Of a stretch of 64,000 bases of DNA, positions 1 through 48,007 are shown piece after piece; the stretch's first letter is position 1; every line of letters begins with the position of its first letter. Both the position numbers and the translations under genes were made by a program. Below the pieces are notes generated by a model. The model was given only the letters and a program-made list of their open reading frames with translations. It searched no databases and was not told where the DNA came from. Source of the stretch: Nannochloropsis oceanica (taxonomy: Eukaryota > Sar > Eustigmatophyceae > Eustigmatales > Monodopsidaceae); contig CP038106.1 in assembly GCA_004519485.1 (NCBI GenBank), positions 1,437,501 through 1,501,500 on the forward strand, written 5' to 3'.

Positions 1-546
1 TGCCTCTTCCTTGCTGCCAAGGTGGAGGAGCAGCCACGCCGTATTCGGGATGCAATCAATTGTGTCTATTTTGCGCAGAGGCGAATGCAGATTCTTCGTA
101 CTGCCTTTACTGCAGATGTTGCTGGTGGTAACAAAGGTGACAAAGGGGGGGAAAGAGAAGTAGGGAAGAATAGTGGAGACTTCCGACAGCAGGACGAAAG
201 AAGACATGGAGTGGCAACAGCACCGCAACGGGAAGCAGATGCTATTTTGCCGTTAGACCGCGGGTACTGGGAAATGAAAGAAAGCGTTGTCGACATGGAG
301 CAGCTTGTCTTGCGTGTCCTGGGCTTCGACCTTGATACCTATCGACCATACCGCATCCTCCTCAACTATGCCCGTTCGTTACGTGCACGTCCTGTAACGG
401 TCGAAGTGGCCTGGGCGCTCTTAAACGATTCCTTGTTCTCGCCTGCCTTTTGCTTGACGAGGCCATCGCAAGCCCAGGCTGTGGCTGTGCTGCATTTGGC
501 ACAGCGGTTTCTAATGGTGCAAGAGCAGGAAGAGGAGGAAGAAGAG

Positions 547-594
<48 letters not shown>

Positions 595-825
595 GATTCG
601 GGTACAACAGCGGGGAGTACCAGCAGCAGCAACAGCTTCAAGCCCAGAAAACACAATTTTGTCATTAAGAGCAGCATACGCTTCAGAAATACGAGCGGTG
701 AAATGCCGGTCAATCGGGGCATGTGGACAGTGCTGGGAGCAAAGGCTGAAGATGTCGAAGCTTGTAGTAACGATCTCCTGGCGTTGTATGAGGAGGGGAT
801 CGAGCCTTCTTTTGAGAGGGGATAA
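1..825 (+). CDS. CCNQ: Cyclin-Q (FAM58A)-like cyclin, 5' end outside window
   Basis: The frame is open from base 1, so the gene starts before the window; the first codons read CLFLAAKVEEQPR, a cyclin-box helix motif. Further on, YWEMKESVVDMEQLVLRVLG and the stretch with AWALLNDS and AVAVLHLAQRF follow the order seen in metazoan cyclin-Q. The family partners a CDK10-type kinase. Between the second cyclin fold and the C-terminal WTVLGAKAED helix lies an insert with a pure CAG-encoded polyglutamine run (about bases 549-593) and Ser/Thr-rich sequence; an earlier Gly/Lys-rich insert lies at about bases 120-240. The stop TAA is at 823-825. Seen: motifs and polyQ. Known: cyclin-Q role. Inferred: orthology; a cyclin L/K/T-type paralogue is the alternative. 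Confidence 0.72.
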
Positions 826-1209
826 ATGGGTATGGAGGGTGAAGAAAGATATGAGGAGGAGGGAGGAAATAGCGTGGTGGTATGGGGGGGGGTCACTGGA
901 GGCAAGAGGCCTTGGGCAAGCAAAGGCCGCGCGGTGCGAAGTAAAAGCGTGTATATAAATAATGTAAAAGGCTTGAATCGGTAATATAGGGCAAAAATAA
1001 TGCACAGAGATTGTTTGGAGAAAAAAGGAGATCAAGTGTGCGTTAGAAGTTTTTTTCCTTTCTTATTTCCTTCGTAGCGATTGATGAATTATTTGATGCA
1101 TTTCAAAATGCGATGATATTTACATCATCATCCTGGTACTTTTTCCAGCGCCTAGGTAATAACCACATGCACATCTCTCTCCTCTCTTCCTCTCTTCCTC
1201 CCCCTCTCG
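826..1209. other. Intergenic, convergent 3' ends
   Basis: 384 bases between the stop codons of the cyclin (plus) and the NAK kinase (minus). I see only GGA-rich and T-rich stretches that probably hold both 3' UTRs; no gene seen. Confidence 0.5.
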
Positions 1210-1233
1210 TCAAAAATCAAACGAGTCCCAACC

Positions 1234-1323
<90 letters not shown>

Positions 1324-2992
1324 CGGGCTTCCTTGACCTCCCTCGTGGGTTGGGCTCGAGCCGCACCCAAATGCGTCCGCTTGGTAAAACCCTAGAGAAG
1401 ATTGGCTGATCACACCTGAGGCAAATCCCGGGTGGCCTTGGTAGCTGCTGCTGCTGCTGCTTCTGTGGTGATTCTCTGTGATACTTCCGTCCACAGTGCC
1501 TCCTCCTGAACGGGAAGTCAGCGACTGCTGCTGCTGCTGTTGTTGCTGCTGTTGGTGATGGTAGTATTGCGGATGATGCGGTGGAAGAGGAGCCGCGAAT
1601 ACTCCTCCTCCTGTCCCTCCCCCTCCGCCTGCGCTACCGAAATTGAATGCGCTGTTATTGATGTTATAAGGGTTGAGTTGCTGTTGCTGCTGTTGTTGCT
1701 GTGGCGGTTTCCACCCACCACCGCTACAATACGGGTTGACCGCTGGGTACAGCGACCGTGGCGGTGATTGATGGTACTGATGCTGCTGTTGCTGCTGTTG
1801 CTGTTGTTGCTGTTGTTGCTGATACTGTGACTGCATTATTTGTGGAAACGACGGAGATGCGGGGTGGACAAGGGAGGATAAGGGGTCTGCCATCTGTTCT
1901 TGGAAAGAGGGAGGAGGATGCTTCATCGCTGGTGGACGAGCCGGCTTGGGTGGTTTCGAGGGAGGAACAAGTGATGCCGACGCAGGAAGGCCATTCTTGT
2001 AGATGCGACCGGTATTGTTGTTTCTGTCCCTGCTGCCGCTGTTGCTGCTGCTACTGCTGCTGCTGCTGTCGATGGCGGTAGGGAAAGTGGGCGGTCGCTG
2101 TTGAGAGAAACCTAATCCACCCATGCCACTGGTGGTCCCAGGGCTGCCGGACAGGGCAAGGAAGTCGATTGTTGTCTCCTCGGGGCCCAAAACGTTGACA
2201 GCGGAATCAGTAGGGAGAGAATGGAAGGTAGCTGAGGGCGTGGTGTGGTGGGCAGTCGTGGAGGTGCTGGTATTGGGGTGGGTGTCGAAAATAGGATCGA
2301 ACGTGCCAGAGGGTGTGTTCCATTCTGCCTGGTTTTCTTCCCTTGGGCCCCTCCTCTTGTTGCTGCTGTTCCTCCCACTGCTGCTGCTGCTGCTGCTGCT
2401 GGCGGTGGTGGCTGCTGTAATTGTCGAAACAGCACCGAAATTCTCGTCATCAAAAGAGGGCTTGCGCACGCCTGGTTGCGGTGAAATTATGGAGGAGGAG
2501 GAAGACGGAAAATCAAGCAGTGAGGCAGGCGAGAGGAACCCATCACTACTCCTCATACTAGTCCCTGATGTCGCTGCAGCCTCTCCTGTCGCTGCTGCTC
2601 GACCAGCCATCGGTGTATCGGGAAAGGGGTCCATGGCCTGAAATTGCTCCGTAGGGGGCAGACACACAAAGCTACCAACCGCCTCTTCCTCCTCTTCACT
2701 CCCTACTCCCTCCTCGGTATTATCCACAAAGAGGGCATCAGCAGCCGTTTCTTCTCCCCCTCCTCCTCCTCCTCTTCCTTCTTCTCCTCCTCCTCCTCCT
2801 CTTAATCCTGCTTCTCCAGTCGAACCCAAATCTGCCACCGTCGTCGTCGCCGCTGGAGTCGCACCCACTCCCGAAGCAACCCCTTCCGTAAACGTGGCAG
2901 AGACGGCTGCTGAAACGGTAGCGGACATTCCTCGAGACCTGCCGGCCAACCGACGAGCCGCCGCCGAATTAGGATTCAAAGCTCTGACTGCT

Positions 2993-11435: not shown

Positions 11436-11830
11436 CTACCTGCCAACGACCTACATAAATAACAAAAATAAGAATAAAAGTGCCCAGAAGGGACCATCCG
11501 TCCTACATATGTCAACAGTTTTTGTTTTCCTTCTCTAAATCAAACAGTGTCGCCTCCTCCGCGCCACGTTTCGTTTGCTTTCCTCTCGTGTGTCTTTGCT
11601 CACACCCTTGAGGATACGTTGATCGTACACACCAGTCGTACATACAAGATACCCCAAAACAATACATCTATCATTACCTTCCTCGATAACTCTAGCATAA
11701 TCTTTTCTACCCTCCTTTTCCACAATCTGTCGGAAAGCTGCATGCCACGTGCCGGCCAAGCAATGCATACACTTTTTCACAAACACGCACACTCTTCCCT
11801 TGACTTTCCTTCCATCCCTCTACCCCTTCC

Positions 11831-12839
11831 TTACTCCCGACGCATTCGCATCCCTGCCATCTTGACACGATAAGTTCGGTCCTCCGCAAGGCGATCCTCC
11901 CACGAGGCTCCTTCCGGAGTCAAGGTCACCACGATGTAGACAGCCTCCCTGGGCGCGTCTCCAGGCACGGGAAGCATCAGTTTCATCTTGTTCTGGCCCG
12001 GCTTCGCCGCATCCCCGGTGGATGAGATCTGAATGTTGGGGCCCTTGCGCATGAGCGACGCCGAAAGAGTGGCTGCTCTTGCGCCGACCATGTTGTACTC
12101 CACTTCCACTGTGGCGGTGGTACCGGGGATGAGCTCCTTGGGAACGCGCTGGAGGGCGACAAAATCGACCTTCTTGGCGTTATCCTTCATCTCGGGGGGG
12201 TTGAAGCCATACGATTTGAAGCTCTGGCAGTCGTTCTTTACGTAGTCGGCAAGGTCTGCAGGAGGAGGAAAGAACGAGATGAGGGACAAGAGTCAGTGAA
12301 TGGATATCTGGTGCATCTACAACAGAACAATCTACCTCATCCCTCATTTTCCCACCCTCCCTCCTTCCCTCCTACTACGTACGTGCCACAAAGCCCGTCT
12401 CCGCCAACATGTTCGGGAAAGGCTCTCCACGCGGCGTCACAAACACCTTCCACAAAAAGGGCTCCGTCACACCCCACTCAGGCATCTTGATCGTGAGCGA
12501 CGCCGCCCCTGCCTGAGTGTCGAACTCCTCCCACTTCCCTGCGTAGAACGCCTTGGTTTGCGCGTTCAGCACGTCCACATGCACGTCCACAGGCCGCTTC
12601 ACATCGCTCGTAAAGTTCACATTCACCGTGAAGGTCTTGCCCATCGCTACTGTGTCAGGGTGACACATGACCTCCACCTTGGCCCCTCCCAGGCCTTTCA
12701 TGCCGCAGCAGTGCGCCTCGGCCGTCTCGGGCTCGCCGTCTGTCACACCGCGGGTGGCGCCGGCAGCCTTAGTGCCAGAAGGGAGGGCTAAGAAAGGCAC
12801 GAGTACGGCGAGGCTGAGAAGAACACGGTAAGGACGCAT
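11831..12839 (-). CDS. Array copy A: secreted two-domain beta-rich protein
   Basis: Exons 12839-12383 and 12255-11831, with a GTACGT donor and CTGCAG acceptor, give 293 aa. The signal peptide is MRPYRVLLSLAVLVPFLALP followed by SGTKAAG. Two similar domains follow: residues about 45-150, ending WKVFVTPRGEPFPNMLAE, and about 165-285, ending YIVVTLTPEGASWEDRLAE. Their shared pattern (P..G.T.TVxVxY, then a TPxGxxxxxxLAE end) suggests an internal duplication of an Ig-like beta sandwich. Exon-1 protein is identical to the other four copies, but exon 2 differs (AKKVDFVALQRVPKE, GARAATLS, NIQIS, QNKMK, RVKMAG in A against DKTVDFVILKHVPAE, GAKKASIS, NTQIS, QNTMK, QTKMAG elsewhere). Function unknown; it may be a cell-wall or secreted binding protein. 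Confidence 0.85.
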
Positions 12840-14222
12840 GATTCCTTCTTGGGACTTGCTTGGAGCTGATGTGGAGTAGCTTGTTGTTTGGCTGTGTTTA
12901 GTAGGGGGGTTCAAAGGACTGGAGGGTAGTGTGAGTGTCGTTTGTCGATGAAAAGGGGTTGGGAATACCGCGTCAAGGGCGCGTGCGAGGAAGGCTGTTC
13001 CAGTGGTGTGCTTGCTTACGACGCACGTGCCGTGGTGAGGAAGTGATGGTACAGTTGACCCCGCATTGCCCCACGACAAAATGATAGGGTATCTTGGAAA
13101 AATTGGGATGCGGTACTGCTGTGTGGTGCCAGGGACTGTGCTACCTAGAAATGCGTCAAATTTAGGGCAAGGCATCTACGCATTAGCACATCGAGCGATA
13201 AAATAAAGGAACAAAACACCATCGAACCCCACATGGCACCCCTCTAGGCAAATACGTGTAATTAAAGGAGCGCCGATCAAGTTTTGGACAAACAAAGATA
13301 GATGGCCTTGCCAGCAAAAGCACGCTTTGGGATTCTTTGGGGCATATTTCATTTGTCAACTCCCCCGCAAAACAAACCATACGGCAGAGGAAAAAGGGAG
13401 ACAGCTGACCCCCCCAAAAAAGAAAAGGACGGGCAACCTCCATATGAGCAAAGAGCATTCGTTGCTTCTGTGGAAGAGCAACTCGATGCTCGTTTCGAGG
13501 TCGCCTGCTTGCCAAGGACGTTTGAAACAACACCTTTCGCGGCGTCGTAGTATAAACCCAACCACAGCCTTGTACACGGATGCGTTTTAAGCTGTGCCAC
13601 ATCCTGTGCATGTGTGCCTGATTCGCATAGATATCCATCTTTGTCCGGAACTTGTTCGACGTCCCCTCGATTACACGAGCCGCCTGGAGGGATGCCTTGT
13701 CGGGCTCGGTGGTTCCGTATTCTTTGCTGTGTTTATTCCATCGCTCAAAAATATGTCTATGTCTTGCCCTGATTTGACGCTTTTCAAGCTAGGACGGTCC
13801 CTGGCCCCATACATCCCGCAGGACGGCATCCCACCTTCTTCAAGTTGCTGTCTTATATTGTGCCGTGGCTATGGACGTGCGGGGCAATGCGGGGTCGGCA
13901 GAAAAATAGCACGTCCCCACGATGGCACGTGCGTCCTCAGCAAGCGCACACCACTGGAACAGCCTTCCTCGTGCGCGCCCCGCCTTTTGTCCGCACCCAT
14001 TGACAAAGCATTACATGCGTCCTCAGCAAGCACACCACTGGAATAGTCAGCCTCGCCCGCGCCCCCCTCCCTATCAACATCCATTGACGGAGCATTCCCA
14101 ACTCTTTTTTTCTCGACCTTAACACACCAGTCTCCCCCTGCATCCCTCCGCATCCCCCCACTAAACACAGCCAAACAACAAGCTACTCGACATCAGCTCC
14201 AAGCAAGTACCAAGAAGGAATC
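12840..14222. promoter_or_regulatory. Head-to-head promoter region between array copies A and B
   Basis: 1383 bases between two divergent start codons. The B side carries two tandem copies of an 84-86-base unit (from about 13932, each starting CGTCCTCAGCAAG). Outer parts of the A and B sides are diverged inverted copies of each other. No gene seen. Confidence 0.6.
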
Positions 14223-15231
14223 ATGCGTCCTTACCGTGTTCTTCTCAGCCTCGCCGTACTCGTGCCTTTCTTAGCCCTCCCTTCTGGCACTAAGGCTGCC
14301 GGCGCCACCCGCGGTGTGACAGACGGCGAGCCCGAGACGGCCGAGGCGCACTGCTGCGGCATGAAAGGCCTGGGAGGGGCCAAGGTGGAGGTCATGTGTC
14401 ACCCTGACACAGTAGCGATGGGCAAGACCTTCACGGTGAATGTGAACTTTACGAGCGATGTGAAGCGGCCTGTGGACGTGCATGTGGACGTGCTGAACGC
14501 GCAAACCAAGGCGTTCTACGCAGGGAAGTGGGAGGAGTTCGACACCCAGGCAGGGGCGGCGTCGCTCACGATCAAGATGCCTGAGTGGGGTGTGACGGAG
14601 CCCTTTTTGTGGAAGGTGTTTGTGACGCCGCGTGGAGAGCCTTTCCCGAACATGTTGGCGGAGACGGGCTTTGTGGCACGTACGTAGTAGGAGGGAAGGA
14701 GGGAGGGTGGGAAAATGAGGGATGAGGTAGATTGTTCTGTTGTAGATGCACCAGATATCCATTCACTGACTCTTGTCCCTCATCTCGTTCTTTCCTCCTC
14801 CTGCAGACCTTGCCGACTACGTGAAGAACGACTGCCAGAGCTTCAAATCGTATGGCTTCAACCCCCCCGAGATGAAGGATAACGACAAGACGGTCGATTT
14901 TGTCATCCTCAAACACGTCCCCGCCGAGCTCATCCCCGGTACCACCGCCACAGTGGAAGTGGAGTACAACATGGTCGGCGCCAAAAAAGCTTCCATTTCG
15001 GCGTCGCTCATGCGCAAGGGGCCCAACACTCAGATCTCATCCACCGGGGACGCGGCGAAGCCGGGCCAGAACACGATGAAACTGATGCTTCCCGTGCCTG
15101 GAGACGCGCCCAGGGAGGCTGTCTACATCGTGGTGACCTTGACTCCGGAAGGAGCCTCGTGGGAGGATCGCCTTGCGGAGGACCGAACCTATCAAACCAA
15201 GATGGCAGGGATGCGAATGCGTCGGGAGTAA
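14223..15231 (+). CDS. Array copy B: secreted two-domain beta-rich protein
   Basis: Exons 14223-14679 and 14807-15231 (127-base intron, GTACGT donor, CTGCAG acceptor, phase 1) give 293 aa with the same signal peptide and two-domain layout as copy A. The protein is the same as copies C, D and E. The mature part has a CC pair (AHCCGMKG) and a further Cys in each half (VMCHPD, NDCQSF), so disulfides are possible. The splice replaces the in-frame stop just after the donor and joins the two domains through a VAHLADYV linker. Confidence 0.88.
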
Positions 15232-15761
15232 GGAAGGGGTAGAGGGATGGAAGGAAAGTCAAGGGAAGAGTGTGCGTGTTTATGAAAAAGTGTATGCATT
15301 GCTTGGCCGGCACGTGGCATACAGCTTTCCGACAGATTGTGGAAAAGGAGGGTAGAAAAGATTATGGTAGAGTTATTGAGGAAGGTAATGATAGATGTAT
15401 TGTTTTGGGGTATCTTGTATGTACGACTGGTGTGTACGATCAACGTATCCTCAGAAGTGTGAGCAAAGACACACGAGAGGAAAGCAAACGAAACATGGCG
15501 CGGAGGAGGAGGCGACACTGTTTACCATAGAGCGGAAAAATACGGAAAGTGTTGACACACGTAGGACGTAATGAAAACACCCGCCCACTCGGCCACAGGG
15601 GTTTGAGTGGGGAGGGTGTGGCGCCATAGTCGCTCACACTCTCCTGACTGTGCTGGTTTTGAGACGACAGGCAGAAATTGAGGTTCATACAAAGAAGTGA
15701 TTCAATGATTCATTAAACACACGTTTCTTACTACAATGCAAGCGCGAGTTTAAGAGAGACT

Positions 15762-16171
15762 CACGCACAGACACCATGTTGCTGGCTTTGGCTGCTTTTC
15801 GATGCTTACTCTTGATCTCTTATATGTAGCACTTTGTCCTGGAAGAAGTCCTGGCATTCAGTAGGGTGGAGGAAGGTATTTATCTCGTCTTTCTTCCTTT
15901 TCTTCTCCGGCTCTCCCTTCTCCTCATTTGCACTATTTGTCTATCTACTTTACCCCCCCACTTTCCCTTCCTCCCCCTTCCTCTACACCCGCTTCCTTTT
16001 TGTCCTTTTCCGCTCTTGATATCCAAATGTAATCACATCATCGCTGATCTCTGCGCAAGCGCCGATAAGAAATCACTCTTGCTTTTCAGGCATCAATTGG
16101 AACAACAGAGCGTTTCTCCTCGTCTGTTCCAAAGGAGCTGCATGGATTCAAAGTAACGCAACATTAAAGTA
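15762..16171. repeat. Non-palindromic loop between tail-to-tail copies B and C
   Basis: 410 bases separating the two arms. It is present in the same orientation, with one visible base change, at 20680-21089 between copies D and E. It is pyrimidine-rich in the middle and flanked by what could be a donor (GTATTTATC near 15876) and an acceptor (TTTTCAG near 16089); no convincing protein. Confidence 0.8.
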
Positions 16172-16701
16172 AGTCTCTCTTGAACTCGCGCTTGCATTGT
16201 AGTAAGAAACGTGTGTTTAATGAATCATTGAATCACTTCTTTGTATGAACCTCAATTTCTGCCTGTCGTCTCAAAACCAGCACAGTCAGGAGAGTGTGAG
16301 CGACTATGGCGCCACACCCTCCCCACTCAAACCCCTGTGGCCGAGTGGGCGGGTGTTTTCATTACGTCCTACGTGTGTCAACACTTTCCGTATTTTTCCG
16401 CTCTATGGTAAACAGTGTCGCCTCCTCCTCCGCGCCATGTTTCGTTTGCTTTCCTCTCGTGTGTCTTTGCTCACACTTCTGAGGATACGTTGATCGTACA
16501 CACCAGTCGTACATACAAGATACCCCAAAACAATACATCTATCATTACCTTCCTCAATAACTCTACCATAATCTTTTCTACCCTCCTTTTCCACAATCTG
16601 TCGGAAAGCTGTATGCCACGTGCCGGCCAAGCAATGCATACACTTTTTCATAAACACGCACACTCTTCCCTTGACTTTCCTTCCATCCCTCTACCCCTTC
16701 C

Positions 16702-17710
16702 TTACTCCCGACGCATTCGCATCCCTGCCATCTTGGTTTGATAGGTTCGGTCCTCCGCAAGGCGATCCTCCCACGAGGCTCCTTCCGGAGTCAAGGTCAC
16801 CACGATGTAGACAGCCTCCCTGGGCGCGTCTCCAGGCACGGGAAGCATCAGTTTCATCGTGTTCTGGCCCGGCTTCGCCGCGTCCCCGGTGGATGAGATC
16901 TGAGTGTTGGGCCCCTTGCGCATGAGCGACGCCGAAATAGAAGCTTTTTTGGCGCCGACCATGTTGTACTCCACTTCCACTGTGGCGGTGGTACCGGGGA
17001 TGAGCTCGGCGGGGACGTGTTTGAGGATGACAAAATCGACCGTCTTGTCGTTATCCTTCATCTCGGGGGGGTTGAAGCCATACGATTTGAAGCTCTGGCA
17101 GTCGTTCTTCACGTAGTCGGCAAGGTCTGCAGGAGGAGGAAAGAACGAGATGAGGGACAAGAGTCAGTGAATGGATATCTGGTGCATCTACAACAGAACA
17201 ATCTACCTCATCCCTCATTTTCCCACCCTCCCTCCTTCCCTCCTACTACGTACGTGCCACAAAGCCCGTCTCCGCCAACATGTTCGGGAAAGGCTCTCCA
17301 CGCGGCGTCACAAACACCTTCCACAAAAAGGGCTCCGTCACACCCCACTCAGGCATCTTGATCGTGAGCGACGCCGCCCCTGCCTGGGTGTCGAACTCCT
17401 CCCACTTCCCTGCGTAGAACGCCTTGGTTTGCGCGTTCAGCACGTCCACATGCACGTCCACAGGCCGCTTCACATCGCTCGTAAAGTTCACATTCACCGT
17501 GAAGGTCTTGCCCATCGCTACTGTGTCAGGGTGACACATGACCTCCACCTTGGCCCCTCCCAGGCCTTTCATGCCGCAGCAGTGCGCCTCGGCCGTCTCG
17601 GGCTCGCCGTCTGTCACACCGCGGGTGGCGCCGGCAGCCTTAGTGCCAGAAGGGAGGGCTAAGAAAGGCACGAGTACGGCGAGGCTGAGAAGAACACGGT
17701 AAGGACGCAT
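16702..17710 (-). CDS. Array copy C: secreted two-domain beta-rich protein
   Basis: Mirror image of copy B: exons 17710-17254 and 17126-16702, 293 aa, same protein. Its 3' flank runs into the 410-base loop shared with copy B. Its promoter keeps two of the 84-86-base units. Confidence 0.88.
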
Positions 17711-19140
17711 GATTCCTTCTTGGTACTTGCTTGGAGCTGATGTCGAGTAGCTTGTTGTTTGGCTGTGTTTAGTGGGGGGATGCGGAGGGATGCAGGGGGA
17801 GACTGGTGTGTTAGTGTCGAGAAAAAAAGAGTTGGGAATGCTCCGTCAATGGATGTTGATAGGGAAGGGGGCGCGGGCGAGGCTGACTATTCCAGTGGTG
17901 TGCTTGCTGAGGACGCATGTAATGCTTTGTCAATGGGTGCGGACAAAAGGCGGGGCGCGCACGAGGAAGGCTGTTCCAGTGGTGTGCGCTTGCTGAGGAC
18001 GCACGTGCCATCGTGGGGACGTGCTATTTTTCTGCCGACCCCGCATTGCCCCGCACGTTCATAGCCACGACACAATATAAGACAGCAACTTGAAGAAGGT
18101 GGGATGCCGTCCTGCGGGATGTATGGGGCCAGGGACCGTCCTAGCTTGAAAGGCGTCAAATTAGGGCGAGGCATGCATGCGGTCGCACATCGAGCGATGA
18201 AATGAAATGAGAGAGCACTACCGAACCCGACAAAGCATCCCTCCAGGCGACTGCGTGTCATTGAATGGGCGCCGATCAAGTTTCGGACATTCAAGCAATT
18301 GTGGCAATGCCAGTCAAGCATATGTTGGATTTATTGTTGCAGTCAATATAATACGTCGACCAACTCCCCCGCAAAACAAACCATACGGCAGAGGAAAAAG
18401 GGAGACAGCTGACCCCCCCAAAAAAGAAAAGGACGGGCAACCTCCATATGAGCAAAGAGCATTCGTTGCTTCTGTGGAAGAGCAACTCGATGCTCGTTTC
18501 GAGGTCGCCTGCTTGCCAAGGACGTTTGAAACAACACCTTTCGCGGCGTCGTAGTATAAACCCAACCACAGCCTTGTACACGGATGCGTTTTAAGCTGTG
18601 CCACATCCTGTGCATGTGTGCCTGATTCGCATAGATATCCATCTTTGTCCGGAACTTGTTCGACGTCCCCTCGATTACACGAGCCGCCTGGAGGGATGCC
18701 TTGTCGGGCTCGGTGGTTCCGTATTCTTTGCTGTGTTTATTCCATCGCTCAAAAATATGTCCATGTCTTGCCCTGATTTGACGCTTTTCAAGCTAGGACG
18801 GTCCCTGGCCCCATACATCCCGCAGGACGGCATCCCACCTTCTTCAAGTTGCTGTCTTATTGTGCCGTGGCTATGGACGTGCGGGGCAATGCGGGGTCGG
18901 CAGAAAAATAGCACGTCCCCACGATGGCACGTGCGTCCTCAGCAAGCGCACACCACTGGAATAGTCAGCCTCGCCCGCGCCCCCTTCCCTATCAACATCC
19001 ATTGACGGAGCATTCCCAACTCTTTTTTTCTCGACACTAACACACCAGTCTCCCCCTGCATCCCTCCGCATCCCCCCACTAAACACAGCCAAACAACAAG
19101 CTACTCGACATCAGCTCCAAGCAAGTACCAAGAAGGAATC
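17711..19140. promoter_or_regulatory. Head-to-head promoter region between array copies C and D
   Basis: 1430 bases between divergent starts. Near each start the two sides are near-identical inverted copies. The C side carries two 84-86-base units and the D side one. The middle (about 18150-18720) is a diverged inverted pair. No gene seen. Confidence 0.6.
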
Positions 19141-20149
19141 ATGCGTCCTTACCGTGTTCTTCTCAGCCTCGCCGTACTCGTGCCTTTCTTAGCCCTCCCT
19201 TCTGGCACTAAGGCTGCCGGCGCCACCCGCGGTGTGACAGACGGCGAGCCCGAGACGGCCGAGGCGCACTGCTGCGGCATGAAAGGCCTGGGAGGGGCCA
19301 AGGTGGAGGTCATGTGTCACCCTGACACAGTAGCGATGGGCAAGACCTTCACGGTGAATGTGAACTTTACGAGCGATGTGAAGCGGCCTGTGGACGTGCA
19401 TGTGGACGTGCTGAACGCGCAAACCAAGGCGTTCTACGCAGGGAAGTGGGAGGAGTTCGACACCCAGGCAGGGGCGGCGTCGCTCACGATCAAGATGCCT
19501 GAGTGGGGTGTGACGGAGCCCTTTTTGTGGAAGGTGTTTGTGACGCCGCGTGGAGAGCCTTTCCCGAACATGTTGGCGGAGACGGGCTTTGTGGCACGTA
19601 CGTAGTAGGAGGAAAGGAGGGAGGGTGGGAAAATGAGGGATGAGGTAGATTGTTCTGTTGTAGATGCACCAGATATCCATTCACTGACTCTTGTCCCTCA
19701 TCTCGTTCTTTCCTCCTCCTGCAGACCTTGCCGACTACGTGAAGAACGACTGCCAGAGCTTCAAATCGTATGGCTTCAACCCCCCCGAGATGAAGGATAA
19801 CGACAAGACGGTCGATTTTGTCATCCTCAAACACGTCCCCGCCGAGCTCATCCCCGGTACCACCGCCACAGTGGAAGTGGAGTACAACATGGTCGGCGCC
19901 AAAAAAGCTTCCATTTCGGCGTCGCTCATGCGCAAGGGGCCCAACACTCAGATCTCATCCACCGGGGACGCGGCGAAGCCGGGCCAGAACACGATGAAAC
20001 TGATGCTTCCCGTGCCTGGAGACGCGCCCAGGGAGGCTGTCTACATCGTGGTGACCTTGACTCCGGAAGGAGCCTCGTGGGAGGATCGCCTTGCGGAGGA
20101 CCGAACCTATCAAACCAAGATGGCAGGGATGCGAATGCGTCGGGAGTAA
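19141..20149 (+). CDS. Array copy D: secreted two-domain beta-rich protein
   Basis: Exons 19141-19597 and 19725-20149, 293 aa, protein the same as copies B, C and E; one base differs from B in the intron. Its promoter has a single 84-86-base unit whose junction keeps the AAGCGCACACC form of unit 1. Confidence 0.88.
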
Positions 20150-20679
20150 GGAAGGGGTAGAGGGATGGAAGGAAAGTCAAGGGAAGAGTGTGCGTGTTTA
20201 TGAAAAAGTGTATGCATTGCTTGGCCGGCACGTGGCATACAGCTTTCCGACAGATTGTGGAAAAGGAGGGTAGAAAAGATTATGGTAGAGTTATTGAGGA
20301 AGGTAATGATAGATGTATTGTTTTGGGGTATCTTGTATGTACGACTGGTGTGTACGATCAACGTATCCTCAGAAGTGTGAGCAAAGACACACGAGAGGAA
20401 AGCAAACGAAACATGGCGCGGAGGAGGAGGCGACACTGTTTATCATAGAGCGGAAAAATACGGAAAGTGTTGACACACGTAGGACGTAATGAAAACACCC
20501 GCCCACTCGGCCACAGGGGTTTGAGTGGGGAGGGTGTGGCGCCATAGTCGCTCACACTCTCCTGACTGTGCTGGTTTTGAGACGACAGGCAGAAATTGAG
20601 GTTCATACAAAGAAGTGATTCAATGATTCATTAAACACACGTTTCTTACTACAATGCAAGCGCGAGTTTAAGAGAGACT

Positions 20680-21089
20680 CACGCACAGACACCATGTTGC
20701 TGGCTTTGGCTGCTTTTCGATGCTTACTCTTGATCTCTTATATGTAGCACTTTGTCCTGGAAGAAGTCCTGGCATTCAGTAGGGTGGAGGAAGGTATTTA
20801 TCTCGTCTTTCTTCCTTTTCTTCTCCGGCTCTCCCTTCTCCTCATTTGCACTATTTGTCTATCTACTTTACCCCCCCACTTTCCCTTCCTCCCCCTTCCT
20901 CTACACCCGCTTCCTTTTTGTCCTTTTCCGCTCTTGATATCCAAATGTAATCACATCATCGCTGATCTCTGCGCAAGCGCCGATAAGAAATCACTCTTGC
21001 TTTTCAGGCATCAATTGGAACAACAGAGCGTTTCTCCTCGTCTGTTCCATAGGAGCTGCATGGATTCAAAGTAACGCAACATTAAAGTA
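20680..21089. repeat. Non-palindromic loop between tail-to-tail copies D and E
   Basis: Direct copy of 15762-16171, same orientation, differing visibly at one base (CATAGG instead of CAAAGG). Confidence 0.8.
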
Positions 21090-21619
21090 AGTCTCTCTTG
21101 AACTCGCGCTTGCATTGTAGTAAGAAACGTGTGTTTAATGAATCATTGAATCACTTCTTTGTATGAACCTCAATTTCTGCCTGTCGTCTCAAAACCAGCA
21201 CAGTCAGGAGAGTGTGAGCGACTATGGCGCCACACCCTCCCCACTCAAACCCCTGTGGCCGAGTGGGCGGGTGTTTTCATTACGTCCTACGTGTGTCAAC
21301 ACTTTCCGTATTTTTCCGCTCTATGGTAAACAGTGTCGCCTCCTCCTCCGCGCCATGTTTCGTTTGCTTTCCTCTCGTGTGTCTTTGCTCACACTTCTGA
21401 GGATACGTTGATCGTACACACCAGTCGTACATACAAGATACCCCAAAACAATACATCTATCATTACCTTCCTCAATAACTCTACCATAATCTTTTCTACC
21501 CTCCTTTTCCACAATCTGTCGGAAAGCTGTATGCCACGTGCCGGCCAAGCAATGCATACACTTTTTCATAAACACGCACACTCTTCCCTTGACTTTCCTT
21601 CCATCCCTCTACCCCTTCC

Positions 21620-22628
21620 TTACTCCCGACGCATTCGCATCCCTGCCATCTTGGTTTGATAGGTTCGGTCCTCCGCAAGGCGATCCTCCCACGAGGCTCC
21701 TTCCGGAGTCAAGGTCACCACGATGTAGACAGCCTCCCTGGGCGCGTCTCCAGGCACGGGAAGCATCAGTTTCATCGTGTTCTGGCCCGGCTTCGCCGCG
21801 TCCCCGGTGGATGAGATCTGAGTGTTGGGCCCCTTGCGCATGAGCGACGCCGAAATGGAAGCTTTTTTGGCGCCGACCATGTTGTACTCCACTTCCACTG
21901 TGGCGGTGGTACCGGGGATGAGCTCGGCGGGGACGTGTTTGAGGATGACAAAATCGACCGTCTTGTCGTTATCCTTCATCTCGGGGGGGTTGAAGCCATA
22001 CGATTTGAAGCTCTGGCAGTCGTTCTTCACGTAGTCGGCAAGGTCTGCAGGAGGAGGAAAGAACGAGATGAGGGACAAGAGTCAGTGAATGGATATCTGG
22101 TGCATCTACAACAGAACAATCTACCTCATCCCTCATTTTCCCACCCTCCCTCCTTCCCTCCTACTACGTACGTGCCACAAAGCCCGTCTCCGCCAACATG
22201 TTCGGGAAAGGCTCTCCACGCGGCGTCACAAACACCTTCCACAAAAAGGGCTCCGTCACACCCCACTCAGGCATCTTGATCGTGAGCGACGCCGCCCCTG
22301 CCTGGGTGTCGAACTCCTCCCACTTCCCTGCGTAGAACGCCTTGGTTTGCGCGTTCAGCACGTCCACATGCACGTCCACAGGCCGCTTCACATCGCTCGT
22401 AAAGTTCACATTCACCGTGAAGGTCTTGCCCATCGCTACTGTGTCAGGGTGACACATGACCTCCACCTTGGCCCCTCCCAGGCCTTTCATGCCGCAGCAG
22501 TGCGCCTCGGCCGTCTCGGGCTCGCCGTCTGTCACACCGCGGGTGGCGCCGGCAGCCTTAGTGCCAGAAGGGAGGGCTAAGAAAGGCACGAGTACGGCGA
22601 GGCTGAGAAGAACACGGTAAGGACGCAT
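21620..22628 (-). CDS. Array copy E: secreted two-domain beta-rich protein
   Basis: Exons 22628-22172 and 22044-21620, 293 aa, same protein as B-D. Its promoter has one 84-86-base unit, in the AAGCACACC form of unit 2, so the loss differs from that in copy D. Near-identity ends abruptly at 22846. Confidence 0.88.
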
Positions 22629-22846
22629 GATTCCTTCTTGGTACTTGCTTGGAGCTGATGTCGAGTAGCTTGTTGTTTGGCTGTGTTTAGTGGGGGGATG
22701 CGGAGGGATGCAGGGGGAGACTGGTGTGTTAGTGTCGAGAAAAAAAGAGTTGGGAATGCTCCGTCAATGGATGTTGATAGGGAAGGGGGCGCGGGCGAGG
22801 CTGACTATTCCAGTGGTGTGCTTGCTGAGGACGCACGTGCCATCGT

Positions 22847-24029
22847 AGGCACTCTGTACATTCCCCCGCGCGTCCCGGGCCAGGGCTTGATAAAACCACG
22901 AGCTAAATGCAGTCTTTCAGTTTTGCGGGATGTGTGTGACAAGGGACTGTACGACGTCTCGAAATGTACTGCTCAAAAGTCCTTGGCAAACAGCCGACCT
23001 CGATAACACCACCCGTGTTGCTATTCCACAGAAGCGACGAATGCTCTTCGATGATCCCCGTCCTTATTTGTTTTTTTTCCTTGGGTCATCCGTCTCGTCT
23101 TGTTGTCCTGCTGAGACATCTTTCTTTTTCTTAAACAACTACATCCAGTAAACACCAATCGATTCACCATCACTCATTTGCCAGAGCGTGGGCGAAGATG
23201 GGTAGATAGATGGTCAGGGGTACCGTCGTATCTTCGGGCTCCGACCGGGTGTAGATGAAGGTCAAAAGCATCAATTTTGACAACAGCAATAACAATGATA
23301 TGTTGTAAAACAACCAACTTTATGGTTGAAACTGTGAGCGAAAAGGGAGCAGTGTTGAAATAGAACTTTTTGAAAGTCTATTATGTGCTCGGTTGTGGCA
23401 AACCGGTGCTAATTGTTCAATACTTGCGCATGCCTCTTGAAGAAAGGGGCGTCCTTCACATCTCAGAGACCTCCATCGATTATGTGTTGGATATAGCCAG
23501 CACCGCCATTTGCCATTCCTATCAACTCATGTAAACTGATCCAGTGATGTGTGCTTTTATTGAGAGGATGATGCTGCTTGTATATGACAAGTTTGGGTGG
23601 GTGCGTGGCTAGCGCCTAGAACAACGAGCAAGCCCGTGATCGAGGGCAACCAGGGACTCGCTTTTACGTTCGCTAGGACAGATTGAGAATAGAGTTGTTG
23701 GGGTGGGCAGAGACGGAGTGGGTGAGTGGCGTGTTGCTGACCTAGCGGCAAGTAGCCACACAAGGTGTAGACTTTATCTCACGCGGAGTTGTTGGACGGG
23801 TTCAAGAGCACTTTCTGGCCATGCCGAGGCAGCGACTCCTCTAATTGACAATGCACCGATCTGCCGCGGCTGTGGATGGCTCTGATTGTGGCTTGGTTAT
23901 CCATATCAGGGAGTTAGTTGCCTTTGCCTTGCCTAGCCCTTTCACCTCCGATTCTCGTTGTACCAACACGTACCAATCACCGCTGACGCACCTCTCTACC
24001 CACTACAAGTCACACAGGCAGACACAACC
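22847..24029. other. Array edge and intergenic
   Basis: From 22847 to about 23130 the sequence is a diverged relative of the far-upstream promoter segment of the array genes (CCTTGGCAA, then TTCCACAGAAGC and ACGAATGCTCTT in the same order as the complement of 18450-18530). The rest, to 24029, has no recognisable gene and holds the bL28 promoter. Confidence 0.5.
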
Positions 24030-24884: not shown

Positions 24885-26949
24885 AGAGGAGGAAGAAGGA
24901 AGAAGGGATGGGACTGAGGGAGGGAAGAACTCATATAGATACTCGCATCGGAGGGGGAGAGGGAAGAGGGGGAAGACGTGGTTATTCAAGGCCTGCTCTC
25001 CACTCTTTCCTGTCTCCAGGGTCACAAATATATATCACGCTACAGCAATTCTCACAGAGCTCAAGGCGACCTTGATGGCATGGACTGGTCGGACAAAGGA
25101 GGGAGGGGTGTAGAGAGATAGAAGGGCTGTAGGGATGATGTGAAGCGCTTGTCTTTCACTCATTCGTACGAGAGTGAGAGAAAAAGGCATTTGTCCGTTG
25201 CCGTCCTTCTAATTTTTATCCTCCTTTTCTTGTGCCCATTCTTTTCTCCTTGTTTCTCTGTCAAGTGCTGGCGTGCATGTAAGTGTGTGAGGGTTAGCGT
25301 GGGGAAGACGGGATGCCCTTCTCCCCATATGCCAAGCACTCACACAAGGAAGAGCAGCAGGGGCCATGACAATAATCCAGAAGAAAATGAACGCCAGGCC
25401 GCGGCGGACCTGTGGAAACAAGAAGAAGAAAAACTCTTTTCGTGGAGTCAGCAGTCATGCCCTCCACTCCTTTGTTGCTTTTGCCGTTGGCTTATATTTT
25501 GTTGGCTTGATTCTTGTCATCAGGGGCTCTATTTGTAAATTATCCCTCGCTTCCTTGTCTTTCCTCCACCCGTCATCTTTACCAATCGCCCCTCCTCTCC
25601 CCCTTCCCTCCTTCCTTTCCTTCGGCCCTCCCTCCTTTCTAGCTCGCAAAAGTAGAGAGGGCCTCAGCCATTATTCACATCGGGGTGGACAGTCCATCCT
25701 CCCCTCTCCTGTGTCTCCAACCCCACCATCTCCACATGACACACATGTCCACAAATGAACGCTTCATACCCAACATTCGTCCATTTCCCTTCCCTCCTTC
25801 CCCTTCCTCCCCCTCTTCCTCCCCCTCTACCACAAAGACCCCTTGGTTTCTCCTGAGATTTTTTTAACCCCCGTGTTTTCCAACGGGAAAATCGAGCACG
25901 TGGCATATAGTAATCGCCCTCCTAATGAAGTGCAGACGAATGCAACGCCATCTGATTGTTGGCGATGCGCTTTGTAGAAGGGAGGCGAGGTCCAGGAGAA
26001 AGTGGGGGTGGAGGGAGGAAGAGGAGGAGGAGGAGGAGGAGGAGGAGGAGGAGGAGGAGGAGGAGGAGGAGGAGGAGGAGGAGGAGGAGGAGGAGGAGGA
26101 GGAGGAGGGGAAAAGATGAGGAATGCTGGCTGACGGAGTCTCTCTCCAACCCAGCACAGAGGGATTCCTAGGAGCTACTGCTGCTGCTCTAGCGGCAAGG
26201 AATAAGACGGGGGAAGCAGAGGCTGGGCTTGCGGATTCCACTTGTTCATTAATGCGACTGCCTCCTCCTTCTCCTTTTCCGTGCCCACCTCGTGGTTGCC
26301 ACCACCACCGGCAACACCACCACCAGCTGTTGTTCTTCCATGGAGCGCAAAACGGTTGATTCTGGCTACATATCGAGACGTCGGTTGGCACAAGGCTTCA
26401 CACAAAGCAGGTCACCGCTTTCCTTATGTAGCGTGGTAATGCGACTCAAAATTAAGGAAAGTCCCACGAACACTCCGTGTTGCTGGACCCATGGGAGGGG
26501 AGAGGTCAAGGTAGAAACCTGTGTGTGTGATGATAGTGGAGGACAAGATGGAGAGATGAGGGCGCAGATCGAGTTCCTTAGCTATGGGGTGCCGCTGGGC
26601 GTGCTGGTGCTGGACCAATTACGTGGAGGCTGTTGGGGAGGGGGAGGGAGAGCGGGGGAGATGAGGGCTCTGATCTTGGAGCCTGTTTTAACACTGGGAT
26701 GGCAGAGGGACAGATTGCGTCCAAATGGCGCATGTGAAAGCAACCAGAGGCAATAAAGGCGAGAAAGCTTGATCTGTGGATGTGTCCCGCCCTTGGTTCA
26801 TACTTTGATATAAGGGCATCTTTCTTCCCCCTTGTCCTCCTCGTTCAAGACTTGTTTCCACCTCTGGCCAGGCTGCATTCAGTGCTACGTATGGTCGCTC
26901 ATCTTTTCCTCCTCTTTCACTGGCACAAATCTAGCTCCTCACTCTCTTT
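24885..26949. other. Intergenic; possible small spliced gene on minus near 25.3 kb
   Basis: About 2.06 kb with no firm gene. On minus, TTTCCACAG followed by about 60 bases reading VRRGLAFIFFWIIVMAPAA (about 25405-25340) and then a GTGAGT donor resembles a membrane-segment exon, but I could not tie it to a start or a family. A GGA microsatellite and homopolymer-like serine frames lie at 26.0 kb. Confidence 0.3.
26019..26108. repeat. (GGA)n microsatellite
   Basis: About 90 bases of uninterrupted GGA units. It produces long polyE, polyR and polyS frames on both strands, none of which looks like a real protein. Confidence 0.95.
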
Positions 26950-28712: not shown

Positions 28713-29873
28713 GTCTTGATGCCAATGCCCTCGCCGTAGAGGATGGATGAGTAAAGCTAAAGCAAGGAGCCTCGAAATGCGACGTCGTCTTTCTGTCAGC
28801 CTTTTTATGACTCCTAGGGACAGGCCCAACACGACGAAACTGTATGTTTGTTTTGTGCCTTGGTGAGTGACAAGCCGGTGGCGAGGGGCTTTGTACATGC
28901 AAACAAAGGCGTGGCCAGTGTGTGTTGATTTGAATTGTGGCTTGCATTATGGGGCTACGGGTGGTAGGGGGGAACGATGAGCTACTTTGCGTTGCCCCAA
29001 AACATCTGCGGCCGCACGTACATGACCACAGACACATGAAGGACGATGTCGGGGCCTATTTCGCTCTAGAGAAAGTCTGTGGGTCTCGGTAATTCAGTCG
29101 CTGGCCGCAAACCGCATCATTGCTAATTGGCAAGGTCGTTCGTTTGTTGAGCCATGCTCCTGGCAATTTGGCTTCTTAAGCAACACGACGCAGAATATGA
29201 TTTTCAGAAACGAGATGAATAAAGTGTTCGTAGAGGAGATTGATGCAATCGATGCGACGCGGGCGAAGGTTGCCCGGCGGGGGGTTCTCCGGGATTTGCC
29301 TGCGAGCGAGCAAGCATTTTGGATTAACGAGTCGCAGACGAGACACCGGCCGATGCTCGAGGACTTTCCGGCATATAACTCTGATTACGTAATGATTGAC
29401 AGAATAAGGATATTGGTGGAAAAGTCTCTCTTATATGATTCTTCACGGAAGGAAAAAGTACTTTCAGATAGTAACGTAACGGAGACGTGACGGGCGTGGG
29501 AGTGTGACATTAGAGTTAAGTAGTGTGCAAGAGATGGAAGGAATGAAATAAATGTATGCTAGTGTTTGTTGTTTCTCGCTAGCATCTCTACAAATCGACA
29601 AGCCCATAATATCAAAGAGCCGTGTGTGCCTTATGGTGTGGGAGCGTAAGGAACAAAACAACACAGTATCGCCGACGGAGTCACCTCACTTCAAAGTCCT
29701 GCCTCTGCAATAAGAAAGAGGGGGAGGAGCCGAGGGAAACACCCTCAGCGCAGACACAAACTTCCGCTCGCTTCCCACTGAGTCCAACACCCACGATATG
29801 CCTCAGGTCCACAAACCACTCATATTTTACCTTCCTGGACCTTGCACACATACCCCGGCGTATTTGACAGAGA
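28713..29873. other. Intergenic upstream of the first sulfatase-like gene
   Basis: From about 29100 it is a diverged duplicate of about 32690-33200, with indels that break any shared frame, so it is probably non-coding. The last about 170 bases are near-identical to 33437-33586 and probably hold the promoter and 5' UTR. Confidence 0.5.
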
Positions 29874-32363
29874 ATGGCGGCAGCGCTGGGGAGGAGAAGA
29901 CCACGGCTTGATGGCGCAGCAGCAAGGGGAAAGCGACTCGTTGGAGCCTTTGCCAGTGCTCTTGCTGTGGGCCTGGGCTTCACGCCTCTGCATCTTTTTT
30001 ATCTCCATCTACGCGGCATGAATCGGCGCCGCAATTTGCTGGCGTGCTTCTTGGAGAACATCATGGCTTATCACCTGCTGCTCCTGCTGCTACGGCAAGC
30101 TCTCTACGCCGTACCCGCCACCACCCGCAAGCAGCAGCGTCGCCAGCTCCTGGTACTACTCGTGGCCGCGGCGGCCGTCTTTTGCCATGCCTCCATTGTG
30201 GCGGCCCAGGTAACGGCGGTGGCGCTGATGGGCTCGAGAATGAACGGGGACTTGATCTACAATGTGGTGTGGGCCGTTAAGACCGACACATGGGGAGAGA
30301 CGGATGCAAAGTATTTTTTCCCTTTTGTCCTCTCCGCCACCTTGGCCATTGACATGGCCTGGCTCTTCTGGGGTCTTAAACTCTCATGTGGCGGGAACGG
30401 TGGCATACTAGACTATGACGAGGACAATGCAGAGGTCAAGGCCGCGCTAAAGAGAAAAGCTGCGGCGTTGGGTCGTGACTGTAGTGTGAAATCCTTGTGC
30501 TTGACGTTTGGAATTGTGGGCTTGCTGCGCTACGGCCTGCTGTGGCGGGGCTATTCACCTGTTGCCAACACGGTTTATTCACTTGCGCAATACAGTCAAA
30601 TGACAGGACCCTCTAACTTAAAGCGAAGCAAGCTTCCGAGAAGATTGCCACTCAGGCAAGCACACAAGCGATATTCCTACAATTATACAGCCCTCCCTGA
30701 TCTCGCTGCTGCATACGCCGCGGCCGCTGAGACCACGCGGGTTGCCAGCAGCGACACCCACGGACAGCAGCAGAAGAAGAAGGACAAGCCCAATGTGGTT
30801 CTCATTATCAACGACAGCTTTGGTAATGCCTTACTAAAGACCAAGAAAGGGCTGAAGGCCTTTCCTTTCTATGAGGAAACGGTGCAGCAGCATAGGGACA
30901 TATTTGACTTCACTAACAATCGTGCCGTCTCCGCCAACACCCTCACGGCCGCTACTGCCGCTCTGCTTGGTTCATACGTGGCTGCACCTGATCCCCACCC
31001 GGACGCGTGGACATATTTTGACTTACCGAATCTTTTTACGATGGGGAAAGCTCTGGGGTATAAGCTGGCCTTGTTCATGCCTTACGAGCACGAGGAGTGG
31101 TATCCGTTTACGGGCATCTATGAAGATCGTTTTGACAAGATCGTGAGCAAAAATACGTTGAATGGAAAGGCCGTGAATGATATGGGCATGGACGACCGGC
31201 TCATTACCGCTGAAGTTCTCAAGTTCCTGGAGGAGGAAGGAGTAAAGAGAGGGAGGGTAAAGCAGCGGCAAGGTGATGAGAAAGGGAAGTATGCGAATGG
31301 AGGAAAGCAGGCGGAGGAGGAGGAGGTAGCGGATTTGCAGCCATTTATTGTCGTTATTTTCTGGAACAATATGCATACTCCATTCTTGCAAAATCCACGA
31401 TATGAGCGCGCGGGAGATCTCGCCGCAAACCAATCGATGTCAGAAGCAAGTCCAAGAACAGAGATAGGCGACGAAACAAAGCGTGCCGTCATGAGGAAGA
31501 CCTTACTCCCGGGCACTAAGACGGAGACAGTCACGGCTGGTGCTGCAAATGGTGGTGATAGTGATGCTGGTGCTACTGCTACTGCCGCCACTGCGGCTGC
31601 TACTCCAGGGAGTCAAACGACGACGAGGAAGACAAAGACACTTGTGTCGCCCGACGTACAGGGGAAGGCAAACTCCTCGATTATAATAAGAGAGGACCGC
31701 GCCATCCATGCCATGGAAATCGGAAACCAAATGATGCAAGACGTGTGGGAGACGCTCGAGTCCACTAGCTTGCTCGACAACACCCTCGTCTCCTTCCAGA
31801 GCGACCACGGGGAGACAATGGGCACCGCGGTCCGCAAGCGTTTGGCAGACCCTGATTCTCTCTATCTCGCCACGCCGCTCTGGATGCACATCCCTCCGCA
31901 CTTGCTATCGTCGTCAGAGCGTGAGGTACTGTCAGAAAATCGAGACAAACTGACGTCCAACATGGATTTGATGCCTACCTTTGTGGAGGTCTTGAAATGG
32001 GACACGACGGAAAACATGTTCAGGGAAAGACCATCCATTTTCAAGCATGGCAGATCGTTGCTTCGCCCAGTGGAGGCAGATCGGTTGACGTCTGGCTGGC
32101 AGGGACGGCCTTTTGTCGAGAGCTGCGATTGGACCCATGGTTTTCTTTTTAATGCCACGCACACGCTCATTCTGCGGGCGGGGGAAAACCATGCCGTGCT
32201 GGAGGCGATTGACCAGGAAGACGGGGCCTGGACGACGGTGAAGGAACGATGGGCGGTGAAGGACTTGCCGGCAGAGGAGGTGGCGTGGTGGACACGGGAG
32301 CTGAAGACGAATCATGCGGATATGGTAATGGCGTTGACGGAGTGCTTTTGGAATTATTTGTAA
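29874..32363 (+). CDS. Sulfatase/LtaS-like membrane protein, copy 1
   Basis: Intronless, 829 aa. The first about 220 residues hold about four hydrophobic segments (LLACFLENIMAYHLLLLLLR, LLVLLVAAAAVFCHA, FVLSATLAIDMAWLFWGL, SLCLTFGIVGLLRYGLL). From about residue 305 an alkaline-phosphatase-superfamily domain follows: KPNVVLIINDSFGN (metal Asp about 314), a likely Ser/Thr nucleophile in AVSANT (Ser353/Thr356) and FQSDHGET (metal Asp644-His645). There is no CxPxR formylglycine motif, so it is closer to LtaS/phosphoethanolamine-transferase-like or Ser/Thr-type enzymes than to classical sulfatases. A charged Gly/Ala/Thr-rich insert (about 540-590) interrupts the domain. Substrate unknown; it is a likely membrane enzyme acting on the lumenal or outer side. 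Confidence 0.75.
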   Translation: MAAALGRRRPRLDGAAARGKRLVGAFASALAVGLGFTPLHLFYLHLRGMNRRRNLLACFLENIMAYHLLLLLLRQALYAVPATTRKQQRRQLLVLLVAAAAVFCHASIVAAQVTAVALMGSRMNGDLIYNVVWAVKTDTWGETDAKYFFPFVLSATLAIDMAWLFWGLKLSCGGNGGILDYDEDNAEVKAALKRKAAALGRDCSVKSLCLTFGIVGLLRYGLLWRGYSPVANTVYSLAQYSQMTGPSNLKRSKLPRRLPLRQAHKRYSYNYTALPDLAAAYAAAAETTRVASSDTHGQQQKKKDKPNVVLIINDSFGNALLKTKKGLKAFPFYEETVQQHRDIFDFTNNRAVSANTLTAATAALLGSYVAAPDPHPDAWTYFDLPNLFTMGKALGYKLALFMPYEHEEWYPFTGIYEDRFDKIVSKNTLNGKAVNDMGMDDRLITAEVLKFLEEEGVKRGRVKQRQGDEKGKYANGGKQAEEEEVADLQPFIVVIFWNNMHTPFLQNPRYERAGDLAANQSMSEASPRTEIGDETKRAVMRKTLLPGTKTETVTAGAANGGDSDAGATATAATAAATPGSQTTTRKTKTLVSPDVQGKANSSIIIREDRAIHAMEIGNQMMQDVWETLESTSLLDNTLVSFQSDHGETMGTAVRKRLADPDSLYLATPLWMHIPPHLLSSSEREVLSENRDKLTSNMDLMPTFVEVLKWDTTENMFRERPSIFKHGRSLLRPVEADRLTSGWQGRPFVESCDWTHGFLFNATHTLILRAGENHAVLEAIDQEDGAWTTVKERWAVKDLPAEEVAWWTRELKTNHADMVMALTECFWNYL

Positions 32364-47976: not shown

Positions 47977-48007
<31 letters not shown>

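What the first reader, a model, noticed from the sequence alone, without database searches (positions are those of the whole stretch)
11490..23130. Five near-identical genes in strictly alternating orientation
One gene for a secreted protein is present five times as -,+,-,+,-, forming nested inverted repeats with arms near 2 kb. Four copies encode the same protein. Such palindromic arrays are normally unstable, so retention suggests selection for dosage, homogenisation by gene conversion, or very recent amplification. The copies and their orientation are seen directly; the cause is inferred.
Basis: partly seen in the sequence, partly recalled or inferred. Interest (0 to 1): 0.8.

Follow-up and report, generated by a model that had tools for sequence, protein, structure and literature searches.

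The report
Five-copy palindromic gene array in alga
A marine microalga carries five nearly identical copies of one probably secreted protein gene in alternating directions, apparently built by inverted and tandem duplication and kept alike by copies overwriting one another, which is a known kind of gene array in an unusual host.

Summary
Window 11,499-22,852 (chromosome 1 of Nannochloropsis oceanica) holds five copies of a one-intron, 293-aa gene as -,+,-,+,-. Copies 2-5 encode one protein; copy 1 differs at 14 residues, all in exon 2. These are not five independent inversions: a palindromic two-gene unit (c2, 404 nt, c3) was tandemly duplicated to c4, 404 nt, c5 (99.74% over 3,907 nt), beside an older inverted copy, c1. 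Gene conversion best explains c1: over about 725 nt it differs from c2 at 4 sites (intron 0 of 127), while both flanks are diverged (28 of 369 in the rest of exon 2; 62 of 205 aligned upstream). The only relatives found elsewhere in the genome (C10, 31% protein identity) are again a head-to-head pair, with perfect 1,315-nt inverted arms. So amplification and conversion both contributed; dosage has only codon-bias support. Caenorhabditis has the same design. The protein has no recognised sequence relative; low-confidence models suggest two beta-sandwiches. Mean reads (4.3 kb) are shorter than the 4.9-kb unit, so exact copy number is not secured.

The parts
11831..12839 (-). Copy 1 (c1): exon 1 12383-12839, intron 12256-12382, exon 2 11831-12255; 293 aa; diverged exon 2
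   Evidence: spliced frame open, 14 aa differences from c2, all in exon 2
14223..15231 (+). Copy 2 (c2): exon 1 14223-14679, intron 14680-14806, exon 2 14807-15231; 293 aa
16702..17710 (-). Copy 3 (c3): exon 1 17254-17710, exon 2 16702-17126; protein identical to c2, 1 nt difference in 1009
19141..20149 (+). Copy 4 (c4): exon 1 19141-19597, exon 2 19725-20149; protein identical to c2, 1 nt difference (intron)
21620..22628 (-). Copy 5 (c5): exon 1 22172-22628, exon 2 21620-22044; gene identical to c2 over 1009 nt
14013..17917 (+). First two-gene palindromic unit (c2, 404-nt spacer, c3)
   Evidence: 99.74% identical to 18929-22835 over 3,907 nt, same orientation
18929..22835 (+). Second two-gene palindromic unit (c4, 404-nt spacer, c5), tandem copy of the first
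15765..16168 (.). Convergent (tail-to-tail) 404-nt spacer of c2/c3; found only in the two array units
20683..21086 (.). Convergent 404-nt spacer of c4/c5, same orientation as the first
12840..14222 (.). Divergent (head-to-head) spacer c1/c2; left part diverged from, right part nearly identical to, spacer c3/c4; itself an imperfect inverted repeat (70-77%)
17711..19140 (.). Divergent spacer c3/c4, imperfect inverted repeat (212 columns at 98.6%, 372 columns at 83%)
12178..12902 (-). Inferred gene-conversion tract in c1 (about -62 to +662, ATG = 1): 4 differences from c2 in 725 nt, intron 0 of 127
22950..23055 (-). Diverged remnant of the centre of the divergent spacer right of c5 (79%)

Best explanation
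A small gene array made in steps. (1) An older inverted duplication gave head-to-head copies of a probably secreted protein gene. (2) A further inverted duplication gave a tail-to-tail pair around a 404-nt spacer. (3) That roughly 4.9-kb two-gene palindromic unit was duplicated head to tail, probably by unequal crossing-over in the homologous divergent spacers, giving -,+,-,+,-. (4) Gene conversion between copies homogenises the gene bodies: a tract of about 0.7 kb in c1 was overwritten by a c2-c5-type copy while its promoter region and most of exon 2 stayed diverged. The likely benefit is more of one well-expressed protein, plus a supply of intact templates in a genome reported as monoploid and asexual. 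Shown: layout, tandem unit, mosaic of c1, the C10 palindromic pair. Inferred: order of steps, conversion as the cause of the mosaic, crossing-over, dosage benefit, secretion and role of the protein.
For: Direct repeat 14,013-17,917 = 18,929-22,835 at 99.74%, spacer included and in the same orientation. Spacers c1/c2 and c3/c4 are nearly identical in their right parts but diverged in their left parts. c1 versus c2 differences: upstream (-400..-71) 62 of 205 aligned plus 125 gap columns, -70..0 4 of 71, exon 1 1 of 457, intron 0 of 127, first 56 nt of exon 2 1 of 56, rest of exon 2 28 of 369, 3' region 20 of 326 plus 5 gap columns; Fisher for -70..640 against 641..1340 7e-10; longest identical run 336 nt, reached in 0 of 20,000 shuffles of 116 differences over 1,611 columns. 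A block of about 85 nt upstream is present in c2 and c3 and absent in c4 and c5, so its state is shared within palindromes. The only other relatives found (C10) are a head-to-head pair with 1,315-nt arms at 100%, including 72 nt 5' and 415 nt 3' of the coding region. Codon bias: 39 of 53 two-fold pyrimidine codons end in C in c2 and 41 of 50 in the C10 gene, against 409 of 830 in eight window ORFs.
Against: No read data, other isolate or other Nannochloropsis species could be examined, so copy number and age are untested. The 85-nt difference could be a recurrent deletion between short direct repeats, and c5 is diverged beyond about -235, so only one edge is informative there. c3 shares one base with c1 (position 772), which fits no single simple tree. 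Differences come in clusters, so the Fisher and shuffle values overstate independence. High expression is inferred from codon use only; the eight ORFs are mechanical frames. Of five families scanned only one other inverted near-identical pair turned up, so inverted pairs are not shown to be common here. Mean PacBio read length was 4.3 kb, shorter than the repeat unit.
Confidence: 0.75

Rival explanations
1. Very recent amplification only: all copies are alike because they are young, with no conversion; c1 is a recombinant formed at the moment of duplication.
For: The two units differ by only 8 mismatches and 1 gap in 3,907 nt, so at least that step is recent. A single crossover could set one of the two tract borders of c1.
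Against: c1's near-identical stretch is bounded on both sides by diverged sequence (upstream 62 of 205 aligned, rest of exon 2 28 of 369), which needs a double exchange, i.e. a conversion-like event. The two halves of the c1/c2 spacer are only 70-77% alike, so part of the array is old.
Confidence: 0.14
2. Assembly artefact: the true locus has fewer or more units, and the second unit is a false duplicate, or further units are collapsed.
For: Mean PacBio read 4.3 kb against a 4.9-kb near-identical unit; the assembly was made with Canu and scaffolded with Hi-C.
Against: No N in the window. The two units carry distinct bases, an 85-nt block difference and distinct divergent spacers, which a copied contig end would hardly have. 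The published protocol names a 15-20 kb size cut-off, so some longer reads should exist.
Confidence: 0.08
3. Protein-level purifying selection alone keeps the copies alike.
For: Four identical proteins.
Against: The intron (0 of 127 in c1) and, among c2-c5, the 3' regions and 404-nt spacers are alike too, and c1 has changed in exon 2 (14 residues; dN 0.06, dS 0.11 by NG86). The C10 arms are 100% identical outside the coding region as well.
Confidence: 0.02
4. The tail-to-tail palindromes act as a hairpin-RNA or antisense locus that silences the family.
For: Read-through of c2 into c3 would give a long hairpin (inference). The genome has a Piwi-domain gene, five exon-sized matches on C14.
Against: No small-RNA data were available; all five frames are open and codon bias suggests strong expression.
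Confidence: 0.03

Closest known systems
Inverted paralogous gene pairs of Caenorhabditis (F44E5.4/F44E5.5, hsp-16 locus, CBG13231-CBG13234; PMC1803023, text parts 1-2 of 4 read)
   Same: Head-to-head and tail-to-tail near-identical paralogues with inverted intergenic arms. In C. briggsae a divergent pair is itself duplicated as direct repeats, with identity confined to the first 297-764 nt of the genes, much like the c1 tract here.
   Different: There the structure is shown to be kept across species; here no second species was available. Other host kingdom and other gene family.
Mammalian sex-chromosome palindromes kept by arm-to-arm conversion (PMC3723533, PMC8981503; search listing and start of abstract only)
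   Same: Inverted arms at about 99% identity or more, homogenised by conversion.
   Different: Those lie on sex chromosomes and are far larger (recalled); here a palindrome with 2-kb arms in an algal genome reported as monoploid.
Inverted Attacin AttA2 duplicates of Drosophila subobscura (PMC7584159, passages; its reference list also cites concerted evolution of Hsp70)
   Same: Inverted duplicates evolving in concert.
   Different: Two copies, an immune gene; here five copies in a tandem of palindromes.
Carbohydrate-binding modules (CBM4, CBM16, CBM22) as a fold comparison
   Same: Both exons give seven-stranded beta-sandwich models; CBMs are among the best Foldseek rows (ranks 1-3 for exon 1; ranks 4, 6, 12 for exon 2).
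   Different: Weak: best E 2e-3 (exon 1) and 7e-3 (exon 2, whose first row is an unrelated bacterial toxin pore chain), TM by query at most 0.45 in the rows listed, model pLDDT 58 and 57; no match over any cut-off in Pfam and none at E below 0.8 in PDB sequences.

Membership tests
Inverted gene pairs homogenised by gene conversion | Paralogues in opposite orientation with arms that include non-coding sequence at near identity | tested here: met
   arms 1,735-2,006 nt at 99-100% among c2-c5; C10 arms 1,315 nt at 100%
Inverted gene pairs homogenised by gene conversion | Mosaic identity: homogenised tract with diverged flanks on both sides | tested here: met
   c1 tract -62..+662
Inverted gene pairs homogenised by gene conversion | Inverted structure conserved across species while sequence diverges; arms more alike within than between species | not testable with these tools
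   the genome has no relatives in the held collection and the other collections are prokaryotic, viral or plasmid
Inverted gene pairs homogenised by gene conversion | New changes found in both arms of one palindrome | tested here: inconclusive
   85-nt block present in c2/c3 and absent in c4/c5; recurrent deletion between direct repeats not excluded
Tandem gene array | Head-to-tail copies of one unit at near identity | tested here: met
   3,907-nt unit twice at 99.74%
Carbohydrate-binding module proteins | Sequence match to a CBM family model | tested here: not met
   no Pfam or NCBIfam family over its cut-off in either member
Carbohydrate-binding module proteins | Beta-sandwich fold with CBM-like topology | tested here: inconclusive

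The most novel reading that the evidence does not exclude
In a nuclear genome reported as monoploid and asexual, head-to-head identical gene pairs (C1 array, C10 pair, C6 light-harvesting pair) are kept as intrachromosomal repair templates: arm-to-arm conversion replaces the missing homologous chromosome for a set of strongly expressed genes, as proposed for Y-chromosome palindromes.
Probability: 0.2. Interest if true: 0.72.

Novelty: new member of a known kind. Interest (0 to 1): 0.45.

Why it matters
The array is a compact, tractable record of how palindromic gene clusters form and stay alike: tandem duplication of a palindromic unit plus an apparent conversion tract with both borders visible. 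Its host is described as monoploid, lacking 3 of 8 tabulated meiosis-specific genes, and its genus as able to do homologous recombination (PMC6610115, passages), so it could test whether inverted duplicates serve as repair templates where no homologue exists. It also marks a gene family with no recognised relatives whose codon use suggests strong expression.

Tried and rejected

As a crude substitute five Pfam families were scanned in the genome: PF00504 (36 matches), PF00125 (15), PF00012 (38), PF00106 (19, with 19 of 107 candidates scored), PF00085 (34). Reading the tables by eye, one near-identical inverted pair emerged (C6 light-harvesting: 688 nt at 99.3% plus 171 nt at 97%) and one direct tandem duplication of a divergent pair (C4 SDR, 95% and 98%, not palindromic). 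Other opposite-strand neighbours with unequal scores (C9 light-harvesting; C10 and C2 histones) were not followed. This gives no rate.

Literature searches showed no paper on this array or on palindromic gene pairs in Nannochloropsis, judged from the titles and abstract starts of the rows listed; most were not opened. Attempts to identify the species by primers led nowhere; the C1 length of 1,670,642 equals the longest pseudochromosome in PMC6610115. The held genome totals 29,264,788 against 29,303,273 published; the difference of 38,485 bases is unexplained. In the codon comparison nine window ORFs had GC3 computed but eight entered the pyrimidine count; the second of the near-identical sulfatase pair was left out.
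Full report
Where it is. The window lies on C1 (1,670,642 bases) of a 32-contig, 29.26-Mb genome. That length equals the longest pseudochromosome of the published Nannochloropsis oceanica assembly (29.3 Mb, 32 pseudochromosomes, PMC6610115, passages). The species is therefore taken as N. oceanica, a eustigmatophyte alga; genes may have introns and must be read with splicing.

Observation. Five copies lie at 11,831-12,839 (-), 14,223-15,231 (+), 16,702-17,710 (-), 19,141-20,149 (+) and 21,620-22,628 (-). Each has a 127-nt GT-AG intron and a 293-aa product starting with a hydrophobic, signal-like stretch (no signal-peptide predictor was run; the splice sites are read from the sequence, not from transcripts). 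Copies 2-5 encode identical proteins with 0 or 1 nucleotide difference from c2 over 1,009 nt; copy 1 differs at 14 of 293 residues, all in exon 2. Inverted arms are 1,374-2,006 nt. Six-frame searches of the whole genome found two further members, both on C10.

Architecture. The regions 14,013-17,917 and 18,929-22,835 are direct repeats at 99.74% over 3,907 nt, and each contains a + gene, a 404-nt spacer and a - gene. The 404-nt spacer was found only in these two units and in the same orientation in both. The alternating pattern is thus a tandem duplication of a tail-to-tail palindrome, next to an older - copy. The two head-to-head spacers are nearly identical in their right parts and clearly diverged in their left parts, and each is an imperfect inverted repeat (70-77% in c1/c2; 83% and 98.6% in c3/c4). 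Right of c5 lies a 79% remnant of a spacer centre, which suggests that the array once had another member or spacer there.

Gene conversion. Against c2, c1 differs at 62 of 205 aligned upstream positions (125 further gap columns), 4 of 71 just before the ATG, 1 of 457 in exon 1, 0 of 127 in the intron, 1 of 56 at the start of exon 2, then 28 of 369 in the rest of exon 2 and 20 of 326 downstream. The homogenised stretch is about 725 nt, with 4 differences, and diverged sequence on both sides. Fisher's test for -70..640 against 641..1340 gives 7e-10, and the 336-nt longest identical run was reached in 0 of 20,000 shuffles; both treat sites as independent, which clustered changes violate. Constraint on the protein cannot explain an identical intron next to a changing exon. 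An upstream block of about 85 nt is present in c2 and c3 but absent in c4 and c5, as expected if arms of one palindrome exchange sequence after the tandem duplication, although recurrent deletion between short direct repeats is not excluded. One site (772) has the same base in c1 and c3 only.

Recurrence. The C10 relatives, 31% identical in protein and with an uninterrupted reading frame, are a head-to-head pair with perfect 1,315-nt arms and a 706-nt spacer without detectable symmetry. The arms start 72 nt before the ATG and end 415 nt after the stop. A light-harvesting pair on C6 is also head to head with arms at 97-99%. A short-chain dehydrogenase cluster on C4 is instead a direct tandem duplication. 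Five protein families were looked at for this, so no frequency can be given, and most of their members are not in such pairs.

Protein. No family in Pfam or NCBIfam reached its cut-off, and no PDB sequence, viral or prokaryotic locus matched with confidence. Each exon, folded alone, gives a seven-stranded beta-sandwich at pLDDT 58 and 57, with carbohydrate-binding modules and GH2 beta-sandwich domains among weak matches and unrelated toxin, viral and complement chains beside them. C59 and C162 are among the residues invariant between C1 and C10. A secreted, possibly glycan-binding two-domain protein is a guess. Codon use (C-ending two-fold pyrimidine codons 39 of 53 in c2, 41 of 50 in C10, 409 of 830 in eight window ORFs) fits high expression; the C6 light-harvesting exon gives 15 of 16.

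Known or new. Caenorhabditis has the same design, including a divergent pair duplicated as direct repeats with identity limited to the 5' part of the genes (PMC1803023, parts 1-2 of 4 read). I file this as a new member of a known kind. What raises interest is the host: the assembly paper describes the genus as monoploid, asexual and able to recombine homologously, and N. oceanica as lacking Hop1, Dmc1 and Mnd1 (PMC6610115, passages), so paralogous arms may be its only standing templates. That reading is untested.

Limits. Mean PacBio read length was 4.3 kb, shorter than the 4.9-kb unit, so more or fewer units cannot be excluded, although distinct spacers and sites argue against a simple false duplicate. 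No isolates, reads or expression data could be examined.

Noticed in passing
window 29703-32366 and 33434-36102: Two tandem, same-strand ORFs (829 and 837 aa) with a Sulfatase domain (PF00884), 96.2% identical over 2,694 nt: a direct duplication about 7 kb from the palindromic array.
   Followed up: partly
L031 (G000:C6:66000-73500): Head-to-head light-harvesting gene pair with inverted arms of 688 nt (99.3%) and 171 nt (97%).
   Followed up: partly
L037/L038 (G000:C4:346500-358500): Divergent pair of short-chain dehydrogenase genes duplicated head to tail at 95% and 98%, giving -,+,-,+ without palindromes.
   Followed up: partly
window 46913-51097: ALG6/ALG8-family ORF (-) and SET-domain ORF (+) head to head, with listed frames 57 nt apart; the SET frame carries long glycine and alanine runs.
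   Followed up: no
window 25979-26118, 46941-47026, 50338-50485: Related low-complexity repeats shared between distant places of the window.
   Followed up: no
G000:C14:579008-580557: Five exon-sized Piwi-domain matches: a likely Argonaute gene in this alga.
   Followed up: no
G000:C32:1124-2818: HSP70-family match on the 117,556-base contig (probably the plastid) with 8 stop codons counted inside the reported match; cause not examined.
   Followed up: no
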